Origin: Candidatus Hydrogenedentota bacterium
GTDB lineage: Bacteria; Hydrogenedentota; Hydrogenedentia; Hydrogenedentales; JAEUWI01
Assembly: GCA_019637335.1 (NCBI GenBank)
Contig: JAHBVV010000035.1
Location: 1-64,000 of the forward strand
Direction of reading: 5' to 3'
Length of the DNA: 64,000 bases
Translations under genes and position numbers: made by a program
Notes under the pieces: model-generated
Database searches by the model: none
The model's input: only the letters and a program-made list of their open reading frames with translations
What the model was told of the DNA's origin: nothing
Shown: positions 4,979-12,498 of the stretch, piece by piece
Layout: each line of letters starts with the position of its first letter
Numbering within the stretch: position 1 is the first letter of the stretch

Positions 4979-5011
4979 GGGGAGCGCCGAGTTATGGGCG
5001 CTCCCCATTTT
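4979..5011 (+). terminator. Rho-independent terminator
   Basis: A perfect 10-bp stem (GGGGAGCGCC at 4979-4988 pairing with GGCGCTCCCC at 4997-5006) with an 8-base loop is followed by ATTTT. It ends the plus-strand oxidoreductase/isomerase unit and overlaps the last codons of the convergent receiver gene. Confidence 0.85.
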
Positions 5012-5642
5012 CGTCATCCAGCCTCGCTTGGTCTTCCTGCGCGAACTTTTCCAACTCTATGTCCAGGCACGACGGGCACAGTCCGTGTGTGAAACGGGCG
5101 CCGGTGTGCTGGCTCACATAGGCTTCGATTGAGTGCCAGCAACCTGTGCGATCACGAACTTTCCTGCAATAGGCGCAGATCGGGATGATGCCGCGTAGAG
5201 CCTCATTGTTACTCAGTGCCGTCCGCAAGAGTCGGCTCAATGATTCCGATTCCGACACCTTCAACCTCAATTGAGTCCGCAGCTGGGACTGCTTGATCGC
5301 GCAGCGGACCGCCCGCCGCAGTTCCCGCCTGCCGAGACCTCGCTTCACCAGGTAGTCTTCCGCACCGGCTTTTATCGCCTTGACAGCCAGTGCTTCGCTG
5401 CCGTGAGCCGTGCACAGGATCACCGGGACTTCCGCATTCACCGGTTGCGGGAGAAAATCGATCCCGTTCCCATCGGGAAGCCGATGATCGAGCAGGATAC
5501 AATCGGGAATGTGTGATTGAAGCATCTCGGCGGCGCCCCGGAGCGAATCCGTGAATACGAGCATATAGGCATCCCCGAGATGCCTCTCCACAAGCTCCCG
5601 GTAAATCTCATCGTCTTCGACAACCAGAACCGTATTCTGCAT
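4992..5642 (-). CDS. Response regulator with C-terminal Cys-rich ICAYC domain
   Basis: This is a 216-residue receiver protein without a DNA-binding domain. The receiver (residues 1-120) has the acidic pair Asp10/Asp11, phospho-acceptor Asp52 in LLDHRLPDG, and the conserved Lys in DYLVKRG near residue 100. After a helical linker, the C-terminal 60 residues carry PICAYCRKVRDRTGCW and GLCPSC, a motif found at the C-terminus of some PAS and hybrid kinases. Its function is not established; two CxxC-like pairs suggest metal or redox chemistry. The gene is last in a minus-strand row of kinase, small receiver and this receiver, with a 10-base gap to the receiver before it. It probably acts downstream of the adjacent ethylene-receptor-like kinases. 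Confidence 0.85.
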   Translation of the reverse strand: MQNTVLVVEDDEIYRELVERHLGDAYMLVFTDSLRGAAEMLQSHIPDCILLDHRLPDGNGIDFLPQPVNAEVPVILCTAHGSEALAVKAIKAGAEDYLVKRGLGRRELRRAVRCAIKQSQLRTQLRLKVSESESLSRLLRTALSNNEALRGIIPICAYCRKVRDRTGCWHSIEAYVSQHTGARFTHGLCPSCLDIELEKFAQEDQARLDDENGERP

Positions 5643-5652
5643 GTCTTAACTC

Positions 5653-6099
5653 CTACGCTAGTTCCACAACGTCGATATATCGGCTGAGCATCTGGATAAC
5701 CGGGCCGAAATCGCCGCCAGATTGATATTTCGGTATGTATCCCGCGACAAACTTATCATAGGCCGCGCGCCGGTCCTCGTCACTGTGCGACGTAGTCATT
5801 ACGAAGACTACGATACCGCGGAACGCGCCGTCCTTCCGGAGTTCCCCGAGGAATTGCAGGCCGCCCATCTGCGGCATTCTCAGGTCCAGCAGCACAATAA
5901 GCGGGGGCGTTATAACGGGCGGAATCTCGCCCCGCAGCACGGCAAGCGCTTCCACGCCATTGCTGGCGCGACGTATGATGAAGGGGGCTCCGGCCCGCTG
6001 CGCCGCACGGATTACACGTTCCGCATCCACATCGTCATCCTCCACCAAAAGCAGGGTTGGCGTTGCCTTCTTGTCCACTTCTATTTCTCCGCTGGCCAT
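5653..6099 (-). CDS. Rcp1-type single-domain response regulator
   Basis: This is a single receiver of about 148 residues, with LLLVEDDDVDAERV at the N-terminus, phospho-acceptor Asp in VLLDLRMPQMGG and Lys in YIPKYQ. The insertion between strand 3 and helix 3 and the ending SRYIDVVELA are typical of Rcp1-like regulators that pair with PAS-type membrane or phytochrome kinases. An alternative ATG at 6144 would overlap the kinase gene by 25 bases; I prefer 6099, which leaves a 20-base gap and the usual short N-terminus. The Shine-Dalgarno signal is weak for both starts. It follows the kinase gene directly, so the pair is very probably cognate. Confidence 0.8.
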   Translation of the reverse strand: MASGEIEVDKKATPTLLLVEDDDVDAERVIRAAQRAGAPFIIRRASNGVEALAVLRGEIPPVITPPLIVLLDLRMPQMGGLQFLGELRKDGAFRGIVVFVMTTSHSDEDRRAAYDKFVAGYIPKYQSGGDFGPVIQMLSRYIDVVELA

Positions 6100-6119
6100 G
6101 CCCGTGTTCGGCGCGACAC

Positions 6120-7631
6120 CTAAACGCCGCCCGTCCTGGGCCATTCAACTTCGAATGCCGCACCCGCGCCGGGGACCGACTCGAGGTGTATGCTACCGCC
6201 AAAGGTGTCCAGAATCTTCTTGACGATGGCCAGGCCCATACCGCTGCCCTCCACCTGATCGCGCGACCGCAACGTTTCGAACATCATAAACACACGGTCG
6301 TGAAAGGCCGGGTCAATGCCCGGCCCGTCATCCGCCACCGTAAAACGGTAGCAGTTCTCTTCCTCAACGCAGAGGACCCGAATAAGTCCGCCGGCTCGAT
6401 TGTGGTGCTTGATTGCGTTGCCAATAAGGTTTTGGAGAATGTGTCGCAGCGGAGTTTTGAGCGTATAAAACACAGGCAGATCCGGGTCGTACTCGACCCG
6501 GAAGCCGGGTGGTGCGTTTAAATCCGTGACGATCTCGGCGATGAGTTGGCTCGTGGAAACTTGCTCCGCGTCCTCCAGCTTTCGGCCTGCCCGGGAGTAT
6601 TGCAGCAAGTCGTCCAGCAGCGTCCGCAGCCGCGCCGCCCGCTGCTGGATCTGGGTCAGGTGGCGCAGCGAATCCTCGGGCAGGTACGGGGCCGCGTCCT
6701 CCACAACCCACGCGGCCAGCTGCTCGATCCCCTCCAGCGGGGACCGCAAGTCATGCGATGCTACATACGCAAACTCGTCCAACTCACGGTTGCTCCGTTC
6801 CAGGTCCGCCGAGTAGCGCACCAGCGTTTCCTCGGCGCGCTTCCGCTCCGTGATATCCATGATCGATGCCAGCACCAGCAAGCCGTCATCGGTTTCGATC
6901 GGGCTCAGCCCGATTTCGATTGGGATTTCCGTGCCATCTTTGCGCAGGCCATGGAGATCCCGGCCCTGGCCCATGGGCCGCGTTTCCGGATCCCGCTGGA
7001 ATAACTCCCGAAAGCCAGAGTGCGCATCCCGCAAACGCTCTGGCGCCAGCGCATCGATGTACTGGCCAATGAGTTCGTCCAAGCGATAGCCGAAGATCGT
7101 CGCACACGCGGTATTCGCTAGCAGGATTTTGCCACCGGTGTCCACCATCACTATGCCGTTCGGCGCCGCTTCGATCACCTGGCGGAACCGCGCCTCCGAA
7201 CGGGACTTGGCATTCAGCGCACGGTTCAACTCGGCGTTTACCGTACTCAGCCCCGGCAGGGCCAGGGCCCTCGGCAACACCGGCAGCAGCGCGAACACCG
7301 TCGCCCACGAGACCGTCGCCGTGATGAATTTGACGGTCCCCGAGAGCCGGTAGGCGGGCCACCAGAATATCACCGCATCTAGCAGGTGCGTGGCGCCGCA
7401 GGAGAAGATGAATGCCGCGAAAAGCCAGAAGATGGGGAGAAACGGAACGTCCTTGCGCCGGAGGATGAAATAGGCCAGTGTGGCCGGGATGGCCATGTAG
7501 GCGCCCCAGATCGCGATATCCGACCCGATGTGCAGCCAGCCGTGGCCCGATGTCCACGTGCCACAGGTCCAGCGCGCCGGGAAATCCGACGTCTCGAAGA
7601 CATTCCAAAGGAAATCGAGCATGGCCCTCAC
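6120..7631 (-). CDS. Ethylene-receptor-like PAS histidine kinase
   Basis: This is a 503-residue membrane sensor kinase. Residues about 35-125 form three hydrophobic helices that match the plant and cyanobacterial ethylene-binding domain. Asp38, Tyr45 and Pro49 have the spacing of ETR1 Asp25, Tyr32 and Pro36, and CGATH gives Cys78 and His82, equivalent to the copper ligands Cys65 and His69. A PAS domain follows (about 145-262), then a HisKA domain with His293 in ASHDLRSP, and an HATPase with HILQNLIGNAIKHH, DDGPGID and GSGMGLAIVKKI. Two receivers lie downstream and a close paralogue lies upstream. It is predicted to be an inner-membrane sensor for a small hydrophobic ligand; ethylene is a hypothesis. 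The start has no strong ribosome-binding site. Confidence 0.88.
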   Translation of the reverse strand: MRAMLDFLWNVFETSDFPARWTCGTWTSGHGWLHIGSDIAIWGAYMAIPATLAYFILRRKDVPFLPIFWLFAAFIFSCGATHLLDAVIFWWPAYRLSGTVKFITATVSWATVFALLPVLPRALALPGLSTVNAELNRALNAKSRSEARFRQVIEAAPNGIVMVDTGGKILLANTACATIFGYRLDELIGQYIDALAPERLRDAHSGFRELFQRDPETRPMGQGRDLHGLRKDGTEIPIEIGLSPIETDDGLLVLASIMDITERKRAEETLVRYSADLERSNRELDEFAYVASHDLRSPLEGIEQLAAWVVEDAAPYLPEDSLRHLTQIQQRAARLRTLLDDLLQYSRAGRKLEDAEQVSTSQLIAEIVTDLNAPPGFRVEYDPDLPVFYTLKTPLRHILQNLIGNAIKHHNRAGGLIRVLCVEEENCYRFTVADDGPGIDPAFHDRVFMMFETLRSRDQVEGSGMGLAIVKKILDTFGGSIHLESVPGAGAAFEVEWPRTGGV

Positions 7632-8170
7632 TCCCTGGCCTCAATCTGCACGTCCCGCGACTGCTGCCTGCGCTGTGAGGAACGGCTTTAACGCCAACCA
7701 AGGCCTTATTCTGCACGAAATCGGCGGTCGATTCCAGCACGCAAGCTCCCGGCCGGGACGGCCGTAAAGTCAATGCGTTCCACACAATCGTCTTGCAGGG
7801 TATCACACCGCTGGACGAGTAGGTCTGGGATTCCCTGCGGAAAAGAGCACGATGACAGCCTTGTGCCCAATCAGAGCGCGAATCGAGGTCCACATCCTGA
7901 TGTGCCACGCCCCGCCGTACAGACAGATAGCCGGAATTAGTCATTCCCGCGATCGGGTGTATCAGGAAACGCGATCGCGCAAGACTCCAGATCCCGCTAC
8001 ATTCCCGGATGCGCCGGAATGGCGCTATGGGACCGAACCACAGAAATGAAGTAAAGATATGAATTGTGCAATCGAGATCAACAGTTCCGTGTGTGAATAC
8101 GTCGCCGTGGAAAAGCGTTATGAAACCGTAGAGTTTTGCATTTCCCTTGGATACTGAGTTCACAGCACCG
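7632..8170. other. Intergenic gap between paralogous kinases
   Basis: No gene is supported; the short ORF at 7852-8049 has no family features. Positions about 7939-8030 (TCATTCCCGCGATCGGG, then GCGATCGCGCAA and CCAGATCCCGC) look like a decayed copy of the dRS3-like element seen at 12634. The rest should hold the promoter of the downstream minus-strand kinase, which I could not place. Confidence 0.45.
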
Positions 8171-9673
8171 CTATTTGGAAATCCGCCGCGGCCACCGGAA
8201 CCGGAACGTGGATCCCGCGCCGGGGGCCGACTCGAGTGTGATATCGCCGCCATAGGCGCCCGCTAGTTTTTTGATGATGGCGAGCCCCATGCCGCTACCC
8301 TCCACCTCGTCTCGCGGGCGGAGCGTCTCGAACATCCCGAAAATGCGATCATGGTACGCGGGATCGATCCCCGGCCCATCGTCGCGCACCGAGAATGTGT
8401 AGTAATCCGCCTCCTCGGAGTAACCTATCTCGATGCGGCCGTTCGTACGCTCATGGTGCTTGATCGCGTTGCCAATCAAGTTCTGGAAGATGTGCCGCAG
8501 CGGGGTCCGCAATGTATCGAACACGGGCATCCCATCCGCCACCGCAATTTCAAATTCCGGCGGCGGATTCAGATCCGACACGATCTGCGCCACCAGATCG
8601 CCGGTATCGACCAGGCCCGACTCTCCGCCCTGCCGGCCCGCCCGCGAGTATTGCAGGAGGTCGTCCAGCAGGTTCTTCAGGCGTTGCGCCCGCTGTCCGA
8701 TGAGCTCCAGATGGCGGCGCGATCCCTCGGGCAGGTGTTCCGCGGCGTCCTCGGTGATCCACACCGCGAGCTTCTGAATCGCCTCCAGGGGCGATCGCAA
8801 ATCGTGCGACGCCACATAGGCGAACTGGTCCAGATCCCGGTTGCGCAGCTCCAGCTCCCCGGTGTAGCCCGCGAGCATCTCCTCCGACAGCTTCCGCTCG
8901 GTGATATCGACCACCGAGGCGAGCACCAGCTGGTCGTCGTCGTAGGCGAGCGGGTTCAGGCCAATTTCGACCGGCACCTCCCGCCCGTCCCGGTGGCGTC
9001 CGTACAGATCGCGCCCGTGGCCCATGGGGCGCGCTTCGGGCTGTTGCATGTAGGCCGCCCGATGGTCCGGGTGCCCGCCCTGGAAGCGCTCCGGCACCAG
9101 CAGCTCGATCGACTGCCCAACCAATTCCTCGCGCGCGTAGCCGAATATCTCCGTGGCCGCCGTGTTGGCCAGCACGATCGTGCCGCGTTCGTCCACCATG
9201 ATCATGCCGTTGGGCGCCGCCTCGATCACCTGGCGCAGCCGCGCTTCCGACTGCTGCGCGCTTTCCAGCGCCTGCTGTAGTTCGTTGTTCACCGCGCCGA
9301 GGCCCGGCAGCGCCAGGGCGCGGGGCAGCACCGGAATCAGCGCGAACACGGTCGCCCACGACACCGCCGCCGTCGCCAGTTTCACCGCTCCGGAAAGCCG
9401 GTAGGCCGGCCACCAGAAGATACCCGCCTCCACCAGGTGGCTCGTGCCGCAGGAAAAGATGAAGGCCACGAACAGCCAGAAGATCGGGAGGAAGGGGATG
9501 TCCCGGCGCTTCAGGATGAAGAACGCCAGGGTCGCGGGGATGGCCATGTAGGCGCCCCAAATCGCCACGTCCGAAACCACATGCAGCCACCCGTGCGGGG
9601 CGGTCCAGTTCCCGCAATGCCACCGCGCGGGAAAATCCGACGTGTCAAACAAATCGCGAAAGAAACCGATCAC
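8171..9673 (-). CDS. Ethylene-receptor-like PAS histidine kinase (paralogue 2)
   Basis: This 500-residue paralogue of the kinase at 6120-7631 has the same domain order. The N-terminal membrane domain keeps Asp35, Tyr42, Pro46 and the CGTSH motif (Cys75, His79), all expected for copper-dependent ethylene binding. PAS covers residues about 143-260, phospho-acceptor His290 is in ASHDLRSP, the N-box is IFQNLIGNAIKHH, and the G-boxes are DDGPGID and GSGMGLAIIKKL. No receiver gene is directly attached, so it may share the two receivers downstream of its paralogue, 540 bases away. The membrane domain and catalytic core are conserved between the two while the linker and PAS regions vary, which suggests a functional duplication. 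Confidence 0.88.
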   Translation of the reverse strand: MIGFFRDLFDTSDFPARWHCGNWTAPHGWLHVVSDVAIWGAYMAIPATLAFFILKRRDIPFLPIFWLFVAFIFSCGTSHLVEAGIFWWPAYRLSGAVKLATAAVSWATVFALIPVLPRALALPGLGAVNNELQQALESAQQSEARLRQVIEAAPNGMIMVDERGTIVLANTAATEIFGYAREELVGQSIELLVPERFQGGHPDHRAAYMQQPEARPMGHGRDLYGRHRDGREVPVEIGLNPLAYDDDQLVLASVVDITERKLSEEMLAGYTGELELRNRDLDQFAYVASHDLRSPLEAIQKLAVWITEDAAEHLPEGSRRHLELIGQRAQRLKNLLDDLLQYSRAGRQGGESGLVDTGDLVAQIVSDLNPPPEFEIAVADGMPVFDTLRTPLRHIFQNLIGNAIKHHERTNGRIEIGYSEEADYYTFSVRDDGPGIDPAYHDRIFGMFETLRPRDEVEGSGMGLAIIKKLAGAYGGDITLESAPGAGSTFRFRWPRRISK

Positions 9674-9804: not shown

Positions 9805-9840
9805 ATAAAAAGGGCCCCGGCGGTCGCCCGCCGGGGCCCT
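9805..9840 (-). terminator. Rho-independent terminator of yebC
   Basis: A 13-bp perfect stem (9811-9823 pairing with 9828-9840) has a TCGC loop. Read on the minus strand it is followed by TTTTTATT. It lies 27 bases past the yebC stop codon. Confidence 0.88.
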
Positions 9841-10786: not shown

Positions 10787-12355
10787 TTATCGCGGCGGAC
10801 GGCCCGGGGCCCGGACAGCCGCCAGCACCAGCAGGGCGAGCCCGACCAGGAACGCATCGGCAAGATAATCCTTCAGGCCGTCGAGAGCGCCCTTGAACGC
10901 AACGCTGCATCCAGGCCGCGGCTGGGGCCGTTGCGTTTCGCCCTCGCCCTCGCCCTCGCCCTCGCCTTCTCCTTCTCCTTCTCCTTCACCCTCACCCTCA
11001 CCTTCACCCTCACCCTCGCCCTCACCCTCGCCTTCTCCTTCTCCTTCTCCTTCTCCTTCTCCTTCTCCTTCTCCTTCACCTTCACCTTCGCCTTCGCCTT
11101 CGCCTTCGCCTTCGCCTTCGCCTTCGCCCTCGCCTTCACCCTCGCCTTCCGCGCCGCCATGCACAAACGCATTCAGCTCCGACAGGCTCAGGAAGCCGTC
11201 GTCATTCAGGTCCAGCTGCTGGAACTGCGCCAGTGAAAGGCCAAAGGTCGGATCCAGCGCTTCCACCGAATCGAGAAGCCCGTTGTTGTCCGCATCCAGG
11301 CCGGCGAAATCCACGATGATCAGGGGAACGACCACCTCCAGGTCCGCCCCCGCGCCCGGGTCCACCGCGTCGATCGCGACCACCTCATACGCCACGGGGA
11401 CCGGCTCGCCCGCAACCGTCATCCCGTCAATTTCGATGCGGTACACCACATCCGCCCCCGGCGGCGGCCCGCCAATCACCGGGTCCCACACCAGCGTATT
11501 GTCCCCGAAGCCAGACTGGAGCGGGTGCTGCGTCAGCGCCTTCTCCTCGCCGTCCTGAAACATCCGCACCGTGGCCCCCGAAAAATTGGCCTGCGGGTGT
11601 GAATACGACCACCGCGCGATGATGAACCGCTTCGGCACGAAGCCCATCGGCGGCCAGGCCGCGGGCATCGAGGCGCCGCTCGCCGGCCCCCCGTTGATCA
11701 CCCAGAGCGCGTTTGCCGCGCGCTTCCCGCCCGCGCTCGCGCCCACCGATCCGCTTCCCATCACCGTCTGCCGCGGAAACAGGATCCAGCGCCGGTGCCC
11801 CGCGCCGATATTGCCCGCGCCGCGATCCTCCATGTATTGATCGATTGCCGCCGGTCCCGCCGACGCCAGCACCAGGTTGGATTTCGACGCCGCGTTCCGC
11901 CCGTTCTCCGTGTAGCAGGCAAAGGTGTTCGGCGGGTTGTGGCTGAGCTGGTTCTGCGCCGACATCATGATCGCGGCTTCCTGGCACAGCGCGTTCAGGC
12001 CCGGATCCAGCGTGATGTTCCCCGGCACCCCCGCCATCGCGCGGAAATAGTTGATGCGATCCGCCGTCGCCTGCACATACGCCGCCGAAGTCGTCCCCGG
12101 CGTGCACGTGTTCGCGTCGCCATTCCAACCCATCGCCACCTCCCCCGACGGCACGTACACATCGAAGTAAAAATCCAGCACCGACGCCCGGTCAAAGGGA
12201 TCCACGCTCAGGCCCTTCGGCGCCGCCGGCGCCGGCTTCGTCCCGGGCCCCGGCGCCCCGACCGGCGGTTCCCCAAGCAACACCGGCCCGCCCAGCGCCG
12301 CCTGGGCAATCACGCCTACAAAAAAATACACGATCCCGTTCCTCGGCATACGCAT
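10787..12355 (-). CDS. Secreted CAP-domain protein with Gly-Glu repeat tail and C-terminal anchor
   Basis: This is a 522-residue exported protein. The N-terminus [20 protein letters not shown] is a signal peptide. Residues about 60-215 form a CAP/SCP-like domain ([38 protein letters not shown]). A region of beta character follows, then an EF-hand-like [14 protein letters not shown] near residue 400, then about 70 residues of Glu-Gly repeats. The C-terminus has a lone Cys (PGCSV), a hydrophobic helix ([13 protein letters not shown]) and an Arg tail, the layout of a sorting or anchor signal. ATG 12355 is chosen because GAGGAG lies about 8 bases upstream; the frame is open to 12496, but the signal peptide starts here. 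Its ligand is unknown. Confidence 0.85.
10938..11148. repeat. Hexanucleotide repeat encoding Glu-Gly
   Basis: About 35 copies of a six-base unit (CTCGCC, TTCTCC, TTCACC or TTCGCC variants on the plus strand) encode the EGEGEG linker of the CAP protein. All changes fall at synonymous positions, so the dipeptide is kept while the DNA drifts. Unit-number change would alter linker length without a frameshift. Confidence 0.9.
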
Positions 12356-12498
12356 CGCGCAACTCCTCGATAACCCTGCTTCGCTGCACTTCACAAAATT
12401 GGCCGATCCAGCCCAATCATACCACATTCCCGGCAAAGCCCACGGCCCGCCGCGCCAGGACCCGTGCCACGTGATGGCGCCCCGGCGCCTTCGCAATT

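What the first reader, a model, noticed from the sequence alone, without database searches (positions are those of the whole stretch)
6120..9673. Tandem ethylene-receptor-like histidine kinases with intact copper-site residues
Two paralogous kinases carry an N-terminal three-helix membrane domain matching plant ETR1: Asp, Tyr and Pro at ETR1 spacing (25/32/36) and CGATH or CGTSH giving the Cys-x3-His copper ligands (65/69). Ethylene-binding domains are sparse outside plants and cyanobacteria. The residue matches are seen here; ethylene or another small hydrophobic ligand as signal is inference.
Basis: partly seen in the sequence, partly recalled or inferred. Interest (0 to 1): 0.8.

Follow-up and report, generated by a model that had tools for sequence, protein, structure and literature searches.

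The report
Paired bacterial ethylene-receptor-like sensor kinases
An uncultured bacterium carries two side-by-side sensor kinases whose membrane part is the same copper-and-ethylene-binding domain that plants use to sense the hormone ethylene, joined to a domain that resembles known haem-based oxygen sensors; such receptors are already known in bacteria, but this branch and this combination have apparently not been tested.

Summary
Two adjacent minus-strand genes (6120-7631 and 8171-9673) encode histidine kinases whose N-termini match Pfam ETR1_N (PF25487) at E 5e-36 and 4e-34. All seven residues that ETR1 needs to bind ethylene are present at ETR1 spacing, and AlphaFold2 gives a confident three-helix fold (pLDDT 96.6). 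The genome is Candidatus Hydrogenedentota. Two response regulators follow, so the likely mechanism is Cu(I)-ethylene sensing with His-Asp phosphorelay, as shown for AzoEtr1 and SynEtr1. Such kinases are established in bacteria; I found the domain in 4-13% of sampled genomes of four other phyla and 37% of Cyanobacteria, so "sparse" is only partly right. Ethylene, copper and haem binding are untested. Verdict: a real new variant of a known kind, of moderate interest.

The parts
8171..9673 (-). HK2, sensor histidine kinase: ETR1_N (residues 27-122), PAS (about 141-265), HisKA (H290), HATPase_c (N402)
   Evidence: Pfam scan; coordinates
9308..9595 (-). Ethylene-binding domain of HK2; D35, Y42, I45, P46, I72, C75, H79, K98
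   Evidence: PF25487 121 bits; residues
6120..7631 (-). HK1, sensor histidine kinase: ETR1_N (residues 30-125), PAS (about 144-268), HisKA (H293), HATPase_c (N405)
   Evidence: Pfam scan; coordinates
7257..7544 (-). Ethylene-binding domain of HK1; D38, Y45, I48, P49, I75, C78, H82, K101; model helices 28-58, 65-87, 94-124
   Evidence: PF25487 127 bits; AlphaFold2 pLDDT 96.6; residues
6828..7202 (-). FixL/DosP-class PAS of HK1: H204 (proximal), R218 (propionate), R224 (distal) equivalents
8879..9253 (-). FixL/DosP-class PAS of HK2: H201, R215, R221 equivalents
5653..6144 (-). RR1, single-domain response regulator (163 aa, phospho-Asp D87), overlaps the 3' end of HK1 by 25 nt
   Evidence: PF00072
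4992..5642 (-). RR2, response regulator (216 aa, D52) with an unclassified C-terminal CxxC...CPxC region
   Evidence: PF00072; no family covers the C-terminus in Pfam or NCBIfam
9811..9840 (-). 13-pair G+C-rich terminator-like hairpin between YebC and HK2: probable upstream edge of the unit
   Evidence: consensus scan, (weak evidence)
4979..5006 (.). 10-pair G+C-rich hairpin at the 3' end of RR2: probable downstream edge of the unit
   Evidence: consensus scan, (weak evidence)

Best explanation
The locus is a two-component signalling unit (HK2-HK1-RR1-RR2) with two ETR1-type receptor kinases. Each dimeric kinase is proposed to hold Cu(I) in a three-helix membrane domain through Cys78/His82 (HK1) or Cys75/His79 (HK2), with the conserved Asp and Tyr shaping the site, and to bind ethylene there. 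Binding would change the signal passed through the PAS domain to the kinase, and so phosphate flow from His293/His290 to RR1 (Asp87) and RR2 (Asp52). Shown: domain membership, residues, fold model, intact kinase and receiver residues, gene order kept in relatives. Inferred from tested relatives: copper, ethylene and phosphorelay (about 0.7 that the domain binds Cu(I) and ethylene). Inferred more weakly: the PAS binds haem (about 0.45), which would make each kinase a combined ethylene and O2/redox sensor.
For: Pfam ETR1_N E 5e-36 and 4e-34. All seven ethylene-binding residues plus K91 present. C65, H69, Y32 and P36 equivalents invariant in 92 relatives across several phyla, as expected under selection for a metal site. 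AlphaFold2 three-helix model, pLDDT 96.6. The same EBD-PAS-kinase layout with an overlapping response-regulator gene was shown to bind ethylene and signal in Azospirillum (PMC11819568; sequence L011). HK1 overlaps RR1, and HK-RR1-RR2 order recurs in G035 and G037. 30 of 70 relatives with enough flank have a receiver within 400 nt downstream and others have fused receivers. For the PAS: every one of the top 31 Foldseek hits is a haem PAS (FixL, DosP or FG214); VIA-align best Z 18.4 to FixL and 17.9 to FG214; H200, R214 and R220 equivalents in all four receptors of the genus. FG214, the best sequence match (E 1e-18), is an experimentally shown haem protein whose proximal ligand H156 aligns with H204 (PMC13060918).
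Against: No binding data exist for this protein, and I found none for any member of its branch. The branch differs from the tested one at near-fixed positions (G, W, A, F, R, W, V against mostly V, A, I, L, W, L/V, A), so the ligand could differ. Some branch members have lost D25 (N or S), which ETR1 needs. For haem: R206 of FixL is Leu or Ala here and I215 is Pro or Ala; the PAS model is weak around the haem-side region (pLDDT about 60); a PAS fold match does not prove a cofactor. The tandem pair was seen in one genome only.
Confidence: 0.68

Rival explanations
1. The domain is a true Cu(I) site but in this branch it reads another ligand or the metal itself, for example another pi-acceptor gas or copper status, rather than ethylene.
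For: Well-supported split from the branch holding the tested AzoEtr1 (100/98), with seven near-fixed differing positions, one of them on helix 1 between the D25 and Y32 equivalents (W in place of A at position 29); D25 lost in some members while Cys and His stay.
Against: All seven residues that ETR1 needs are kept in HK1 and HK2; the tested proteins of the other branch already span cyanobacteria and a proteobacterium (PMC6682694, PMC11819568) and bind ethylene.
Confidence: 0.2
2. The PAS domain carries the main signal (O2 or redox through haem) and the ETR1-like domain serves mainly as membrane anchor and dimerisation unit.
For: FixL is itself a membrane kinase with a haem PAS (established knowledge); the PAS matches haem PAS domains best in sequence and fold.
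Against: The metal-site residues are nearly invariant, which a mere anchor would not need; the ethylene domains of HK1 and HK2 are more alike (81%) than their PAS (59%) or kinase parts (62%); relatives without any PAS keep the ethylene domain.
Confidence: 0.07
3. The PAS domain is an ordinary cofactor-free or otherwise liganded PAS and only the ethylene domain senses. (This rivals only the haem step of the best explanation.)
For: The proximal-type His is also present in PAS domains whose cofactor is unknown (L087, L039, L095); FixL R206 and I215 are not kept; in AzoEtr1 the PAS lacks the FixL motif (sequence) yet the receptor works.
Against: FG214, a member of this wider class and the best sequence match, binds haem; H200, R214 and R220 equivalents occur together in all four receptors of the genus.
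Confidence: 0.45

Closest known systems
AzoEtr1 / AzoRR-etr1 of Azospirillum brasilense (PMC11819568)
   Same: EBD-PAS-histidine kinase, about 500-525 aa, with a response regulator gene overlapping the kinase's stop; seven ethylene residues kept; EBD 47% identical to HK1's.
   Different: One receptor, not two in tandem; PAS without the FixL motif and a different kinase sequence type; EBD in the other branch; no RR2.
SynEtr1 (slr1212) of Synechocystis and other cyanobacterial ethylene receptors (PMC6682694)
   Same: EBD at the N-terminus, histidine kinase output, a second sensory module in the same protein (light), a response regulator downstream in the pathway.
   Different: The second module is a cyanobacteriochrome, not a FixL-type PAS; cyanobacterial EBDs sampled here fall mostly in the other branch.
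Plant ETR1/ERS1 ethylene receptors
   Same: Three-helix domain, D25/Y32/I35/P36/I62/C65/H69/K91 equivalents, an N-terminal Cys that may serve dimerisation.
   Different: PAS in place of GAF; separate receiver proteins; complete kinase with linked phosphorelay partners.
FixL and DosP haem-PAS oxygen sensors; FG214 haem-PAS one-component switch (PDB 10jx, PMC13060918)
   Same: PAS fold and class, proximal His, propionate Arg; distal Arg as in FixL and DosP.
   Different: FixL R206 and I215 not kept; FG214's distal His175 absent; joined here to an ethylene domain; haem not shown.

Membership tests
ETR1-type ethylene receptor (ethylene-binding domain) | Match to the ETR1_N profile above its curated cut-off | tested here: met
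   123 and 117 bits against 27
ETR1-type ethylene receptor (ethylene-binding domain) | Seven residues required for ethylene binding in ETR1 (D25 Y32 I35 P36 I62 C65 H69) | tested here: met
   all seven in HK1 and HK2
ETR1-type ethylene receptor (ethylene-binding domain) | Three transmembrane helices with metal ligands on helix 2 | tested here: met
   AlphaFold2 helices 28-58, 65-87, 94-124; C78 and H82 on the second. Model only; no solved relative in the PDB by sequence and no clear fold match
ETR1-type ethylene receptor (ethylene-binding domain) | Cu(I) cofactor and saturable ethylene binding | not testable with these tools
   needs radioligand binding; known only for members outside this branch (PMC11819568, PMC6682694)
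Bacterial ethylene-receptor two-component system (SynEtr1/AzoEtr1 kind) | Intact histidine kinase plus linked response regulator | tested here: met
   HisKA, HATPase_c and two Response_reg proteins; H293/H290, N405/N402, D87, D52
Plant ETR1 subfamily | GAF domain between ethylene domain and kinase | tested here: not met
   PAS families only, no GAF
FixL/DosP haem PAS | PAS domain whose nearest solved relatives are haem PAS domains | tested here: met
   sequence; top 31 Foldseek hits; Z 18.4
FixL/DosP haem PAS | Proximal His (BjFixL H200) and distal Arg (R220) | tested here: met
   H204/R224 in HK1, H201/R221 in HK2, also in G035 and G037
FixL/DosP haem PAS | BjFixL R206 and hydrophobic distal residues I215, L236, I238 | tested here: inconclusive
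   R206 is Leu or Ala and I215 is Pro or Ala; L236 and I238 are Ile and Leu. FG214 also lacks R206 yet binds haem
FixL/DosP haem PAS | Bound haem | not testable with these tools
   needs purified protein

The most novel reading that the evidence does not exclude
A two-gas receptor: one membrane kinase that reads ethylene through a Cu(I) site and O2 (or redox) through a FixL-like haem PAS, present as a diverged tandem pair that could form mixed dimers, in a branch of the ethylene-receptor family whose ligand has not been tested.
Probability: 0.3. Interest if true: 0.65.

Novelty: new variant of a known kind. Interest (0 to 1): 0.47.

Why it matters
Functional work on bacterial ethylene receptors found here covers cyanobacteria and one plant-associated proteobacterium. 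If this branch binds ethylene, ethylene sensing reaches uncultured bacteria with no evident plant partner; if it does not, it would show what else this copper domain can read. A haem PAS behind the ethylene domain would give a compact receptor that combines ethylene with oxygen. The isolated 135-residue domain models very confidently and can be tested with the standard Pichia binding assay.

Tried and rejected
Unrelated membrane family for the N-terminus: rejected, since ETR1_N is the only Pfam match there. Solved structure of the domain: none by single sequence, by profile or by fold; the best viral-model hit was weak (E 7.6e-3, unnamed). Recent tandem duplication: not supported; HK1 and HK2 are about as far from each other (64%) as from the single copies in G035 and G037 (62-66%), and the four-way branching order is unresolved. 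Branch split as an artefact of picking the 80 nearest relatives: retested with 39 domains drawn by Pfam profile from four phyla; the split held (99), though one Planctomycetota sequence was intermediate. Widespread EBD + FixL-type PAS: among 80 relatives the His+Arg combination was found only in this genus, while His without Arg occurs in several Bacteroidota. Searches for papers on ethylene receptors in Hydrogenedentota, Planctomycetes or Verrucomicrobia found none in the library; the library lacks most subscription papers; Lacey and Binder 2016 is not held, and the review of non-plant receptors (Carlew 2019) was seen only as a citation.
Full report
OBSERVATION. Pfam ETR1_N (PF25487) matches residues 30-125 of HK1 (E 5.2e-36) and 27-122 of HK2 (E 4.4e-34), 117-123 bits against a cut-off of 27. 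The genome has no other copy and 14 control genomes have none. Downstream each protein has one PAS, a HisKA and a HATPase_c domain. The seven residues that alanine scanning of ETR1 found necessary for ethylene binding (their number and role from PMC11819568; the individual names from my own knowledge of Wang et al. 2006) are all present: HK1 D38, Y45, I48, P49, I75, C78, H82; HK2 D35, Y42, I45, P46, I72, C75, H79; plus the K91 equivalent K101/K98. The 40-residue spacing from Asp to Cys equals ETR1's.

ORGANISM. Contigs of two relatives reached by the genome search (G037:C77, 4165 bases; G034:C129, 67516 bases) have the same lengths as, and the same kinases as, records titled Candidatus Hydrogenedentota (L019, L033). 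G037 is of the window's genus and G034 of its family, so the window is taken to be Hydrogenedentota.

ANATOMY OF THE UNIT. HK1 overlaps RR1 (5653-6144) by 25 nt, RR2 (4992-5642) follows after 10 nt, and HK2 lies 539 nt upstream of HK1. All four face the same way; terminator-like hairpins lie at 9840-9811 and 4979-5006 (consensus matches only). RR1 is a single receiver; RR2 has a receiver and a C-terminal Cys-rich region in no Pfam or NCBIfam model. Flanking genes are a YebC homologue, an oxidoreductase and a TIM-barrel protein, with no evident tie to ethylene. In G037 and G035 the order HK-RR1-RR2 recurs; in G034 a PAS-less EBD kinase is followed by an RR2-type protein; a second G037 locus has EBD-kinase, receiver and a receiver-sensor protein. 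The tandem pair was seen only in the window: G035 has one kinase at the equivalent place, the G037 contig ends inside the kinase, and in the sampled genomes of the other phyla no two full-length EBD matches lay within 4 kb. G036, of the same genus, has no EBD.

DISTRIBUTION. Sampled whole genomes with a match: Hydrogenedentota 4 of 68, all in the window's family; Planctomycetota 15 of 118; Verrucomicrobiota 7 of 115; Bacteroidota 9 of 148; Cyanobacteria 29 of 78. That is about 6, 13, 6, 6 and 37%. Each sample includes the genome used as its centre, which carries the domain by choice, so the true shares are slightly lower. The domain is a minority feature but not a rarity. Earlier papers already state that putative receptors occur in many bacteria (PMC11819568, PMC6682694).

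CONSERVATION AND TREE. In 92 aligned domains Y32, P36, C65 and H69 equivalents are invariant, I62 91/92, I35 90/92, D25 88/92, K91 54/92 with Arg in 28. The window's four-member genus group is supported (95-98 by SH-aLRT). The domains split into two branches: one with cyanobacteria, proteobacteria and AzoEtr1, the other with the window and most Planctomycetota, Bacteroidota and some Verrucomicrobiota of the nearest set (100/98). Seven positions separate them almost cleanly. I retested with 39 domains picked by Pfam profile rather than by similarity to HK1: the first branch, now with some Planctomycetota, Verrucomicrobiota and Bacteroidota, is again one side of a branch (99), so the branches do not follow phylum strictly. 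With 97 columns the inner order is not resolved. Plant sequences were not in these trees.

STRUCTURE. AlphaFold2 on a 60-row alignment gives pLDDT 96.6 with helices 28-58, 65-87 and 94-124; the putative metal ligands lie one turn apart on the second helix. C23 and W26 ahead of helix 1 are also invariant in the alignment; a single N-terminal Cys is noted in cyanobacterial receptors as a possible dimer disulfide (PMC6682694).

THE PAS DOMAIN. The best solved sequence relatives of the HK1 PAS are haem PAS domains: FG214 (PDB 10jx, E 1e-18), RmFixL, BjFixL and DosP. The AlphaFold2 model (pLDDT 84, weak at residues 60-90) gives FixL, FG214 and DosP as all of the first 31 Foldseek hits, ahead of LOV, NifL and other PAS domains, and VIA-align Z 18.4 for FixL and 17.9 for FG214. 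BjFixL H200, H214 (Arg in RmFixL) and R220 are matched by H204, R218 and R224 in HK1 and by the same letters in HK2, G035 and G037. FG214's proximal ligand was assigned as H156 by mutagenesis and seen in the crystal (PMC13060918) and aligns with H204. Against: FixL R206 and I215 are not kept, and His alone also occurs in relatives with unknown cofactor. In the 80 nearest EBD kinases the His+Arg pair occurs only in this genus. The same genome has two more PAS domains with the classic FixL pattern (L101, L102). I put haem binding at 0.45.

MECHANISM. Most likely: a dimeric receptor kinase with a Cu(I)-ethylene site in the membrane, signalling through PAS to the kinase and by phosphotransfer to RR1 and RR2. 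Domain, residues, fold model, kinase and receiver residues and gene order are shown here; copper, ethylene and phosphotransfer are inferred from SynEtr1 and AzoEtr1; haem is a weaker inference. Relatives fit the two-component picture: 30 of 70 have a receiver gene within 400 nt and others carry fused receivers.

NOVELTY. Bacterial ethylene-receptor kinases are known, so this is not a new kind. New as far as I could find: the phylum, the diverged tandem pair, the pairing with a FixL-class PAS, and the branch with no tested member. The literature search is limited to open papers.

Noticed in passing
window 4992-5642 (RR2 C-terminus), L160-L162: About 75 residues with a CAYCxKVRDxxGxW...THGxCPxC pattern, in no Pfam or NCBIfam family; three further good copies in the genome and one in related EBD units of G034, G035 and G037. 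Possibly a small zinc-binding output module.
   Followed up: partly
L150, L152, L153, L154, L156: Some cyanobacterial ETR1_N-like domains have Gly or Tyr at the C65 position while keeping H69, so they may not bind copper.
   Followed up: no
L032, L051, L061, L073, L145: Several Bacteroidota EBD kinases have Asn or Ser at the D25 position with Cys and His kept.
   Followed up: no
L101, L102: Two more PAS domains with the classic FixL motif (proximal His, distal Arg) elsewhere in the same genome.
   Followed up: no
window 10787-12496: CAP-domain protein with an EF-hand-like stretch and a long Gly-Glu repeat tract before a hydrophobic C-terminus.
   Followed up: no
L039: A Bacteroidales EBD kinase whose PAS is 52% identical to HK1's but has Met at the distal Arg position.
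   Followed up: no
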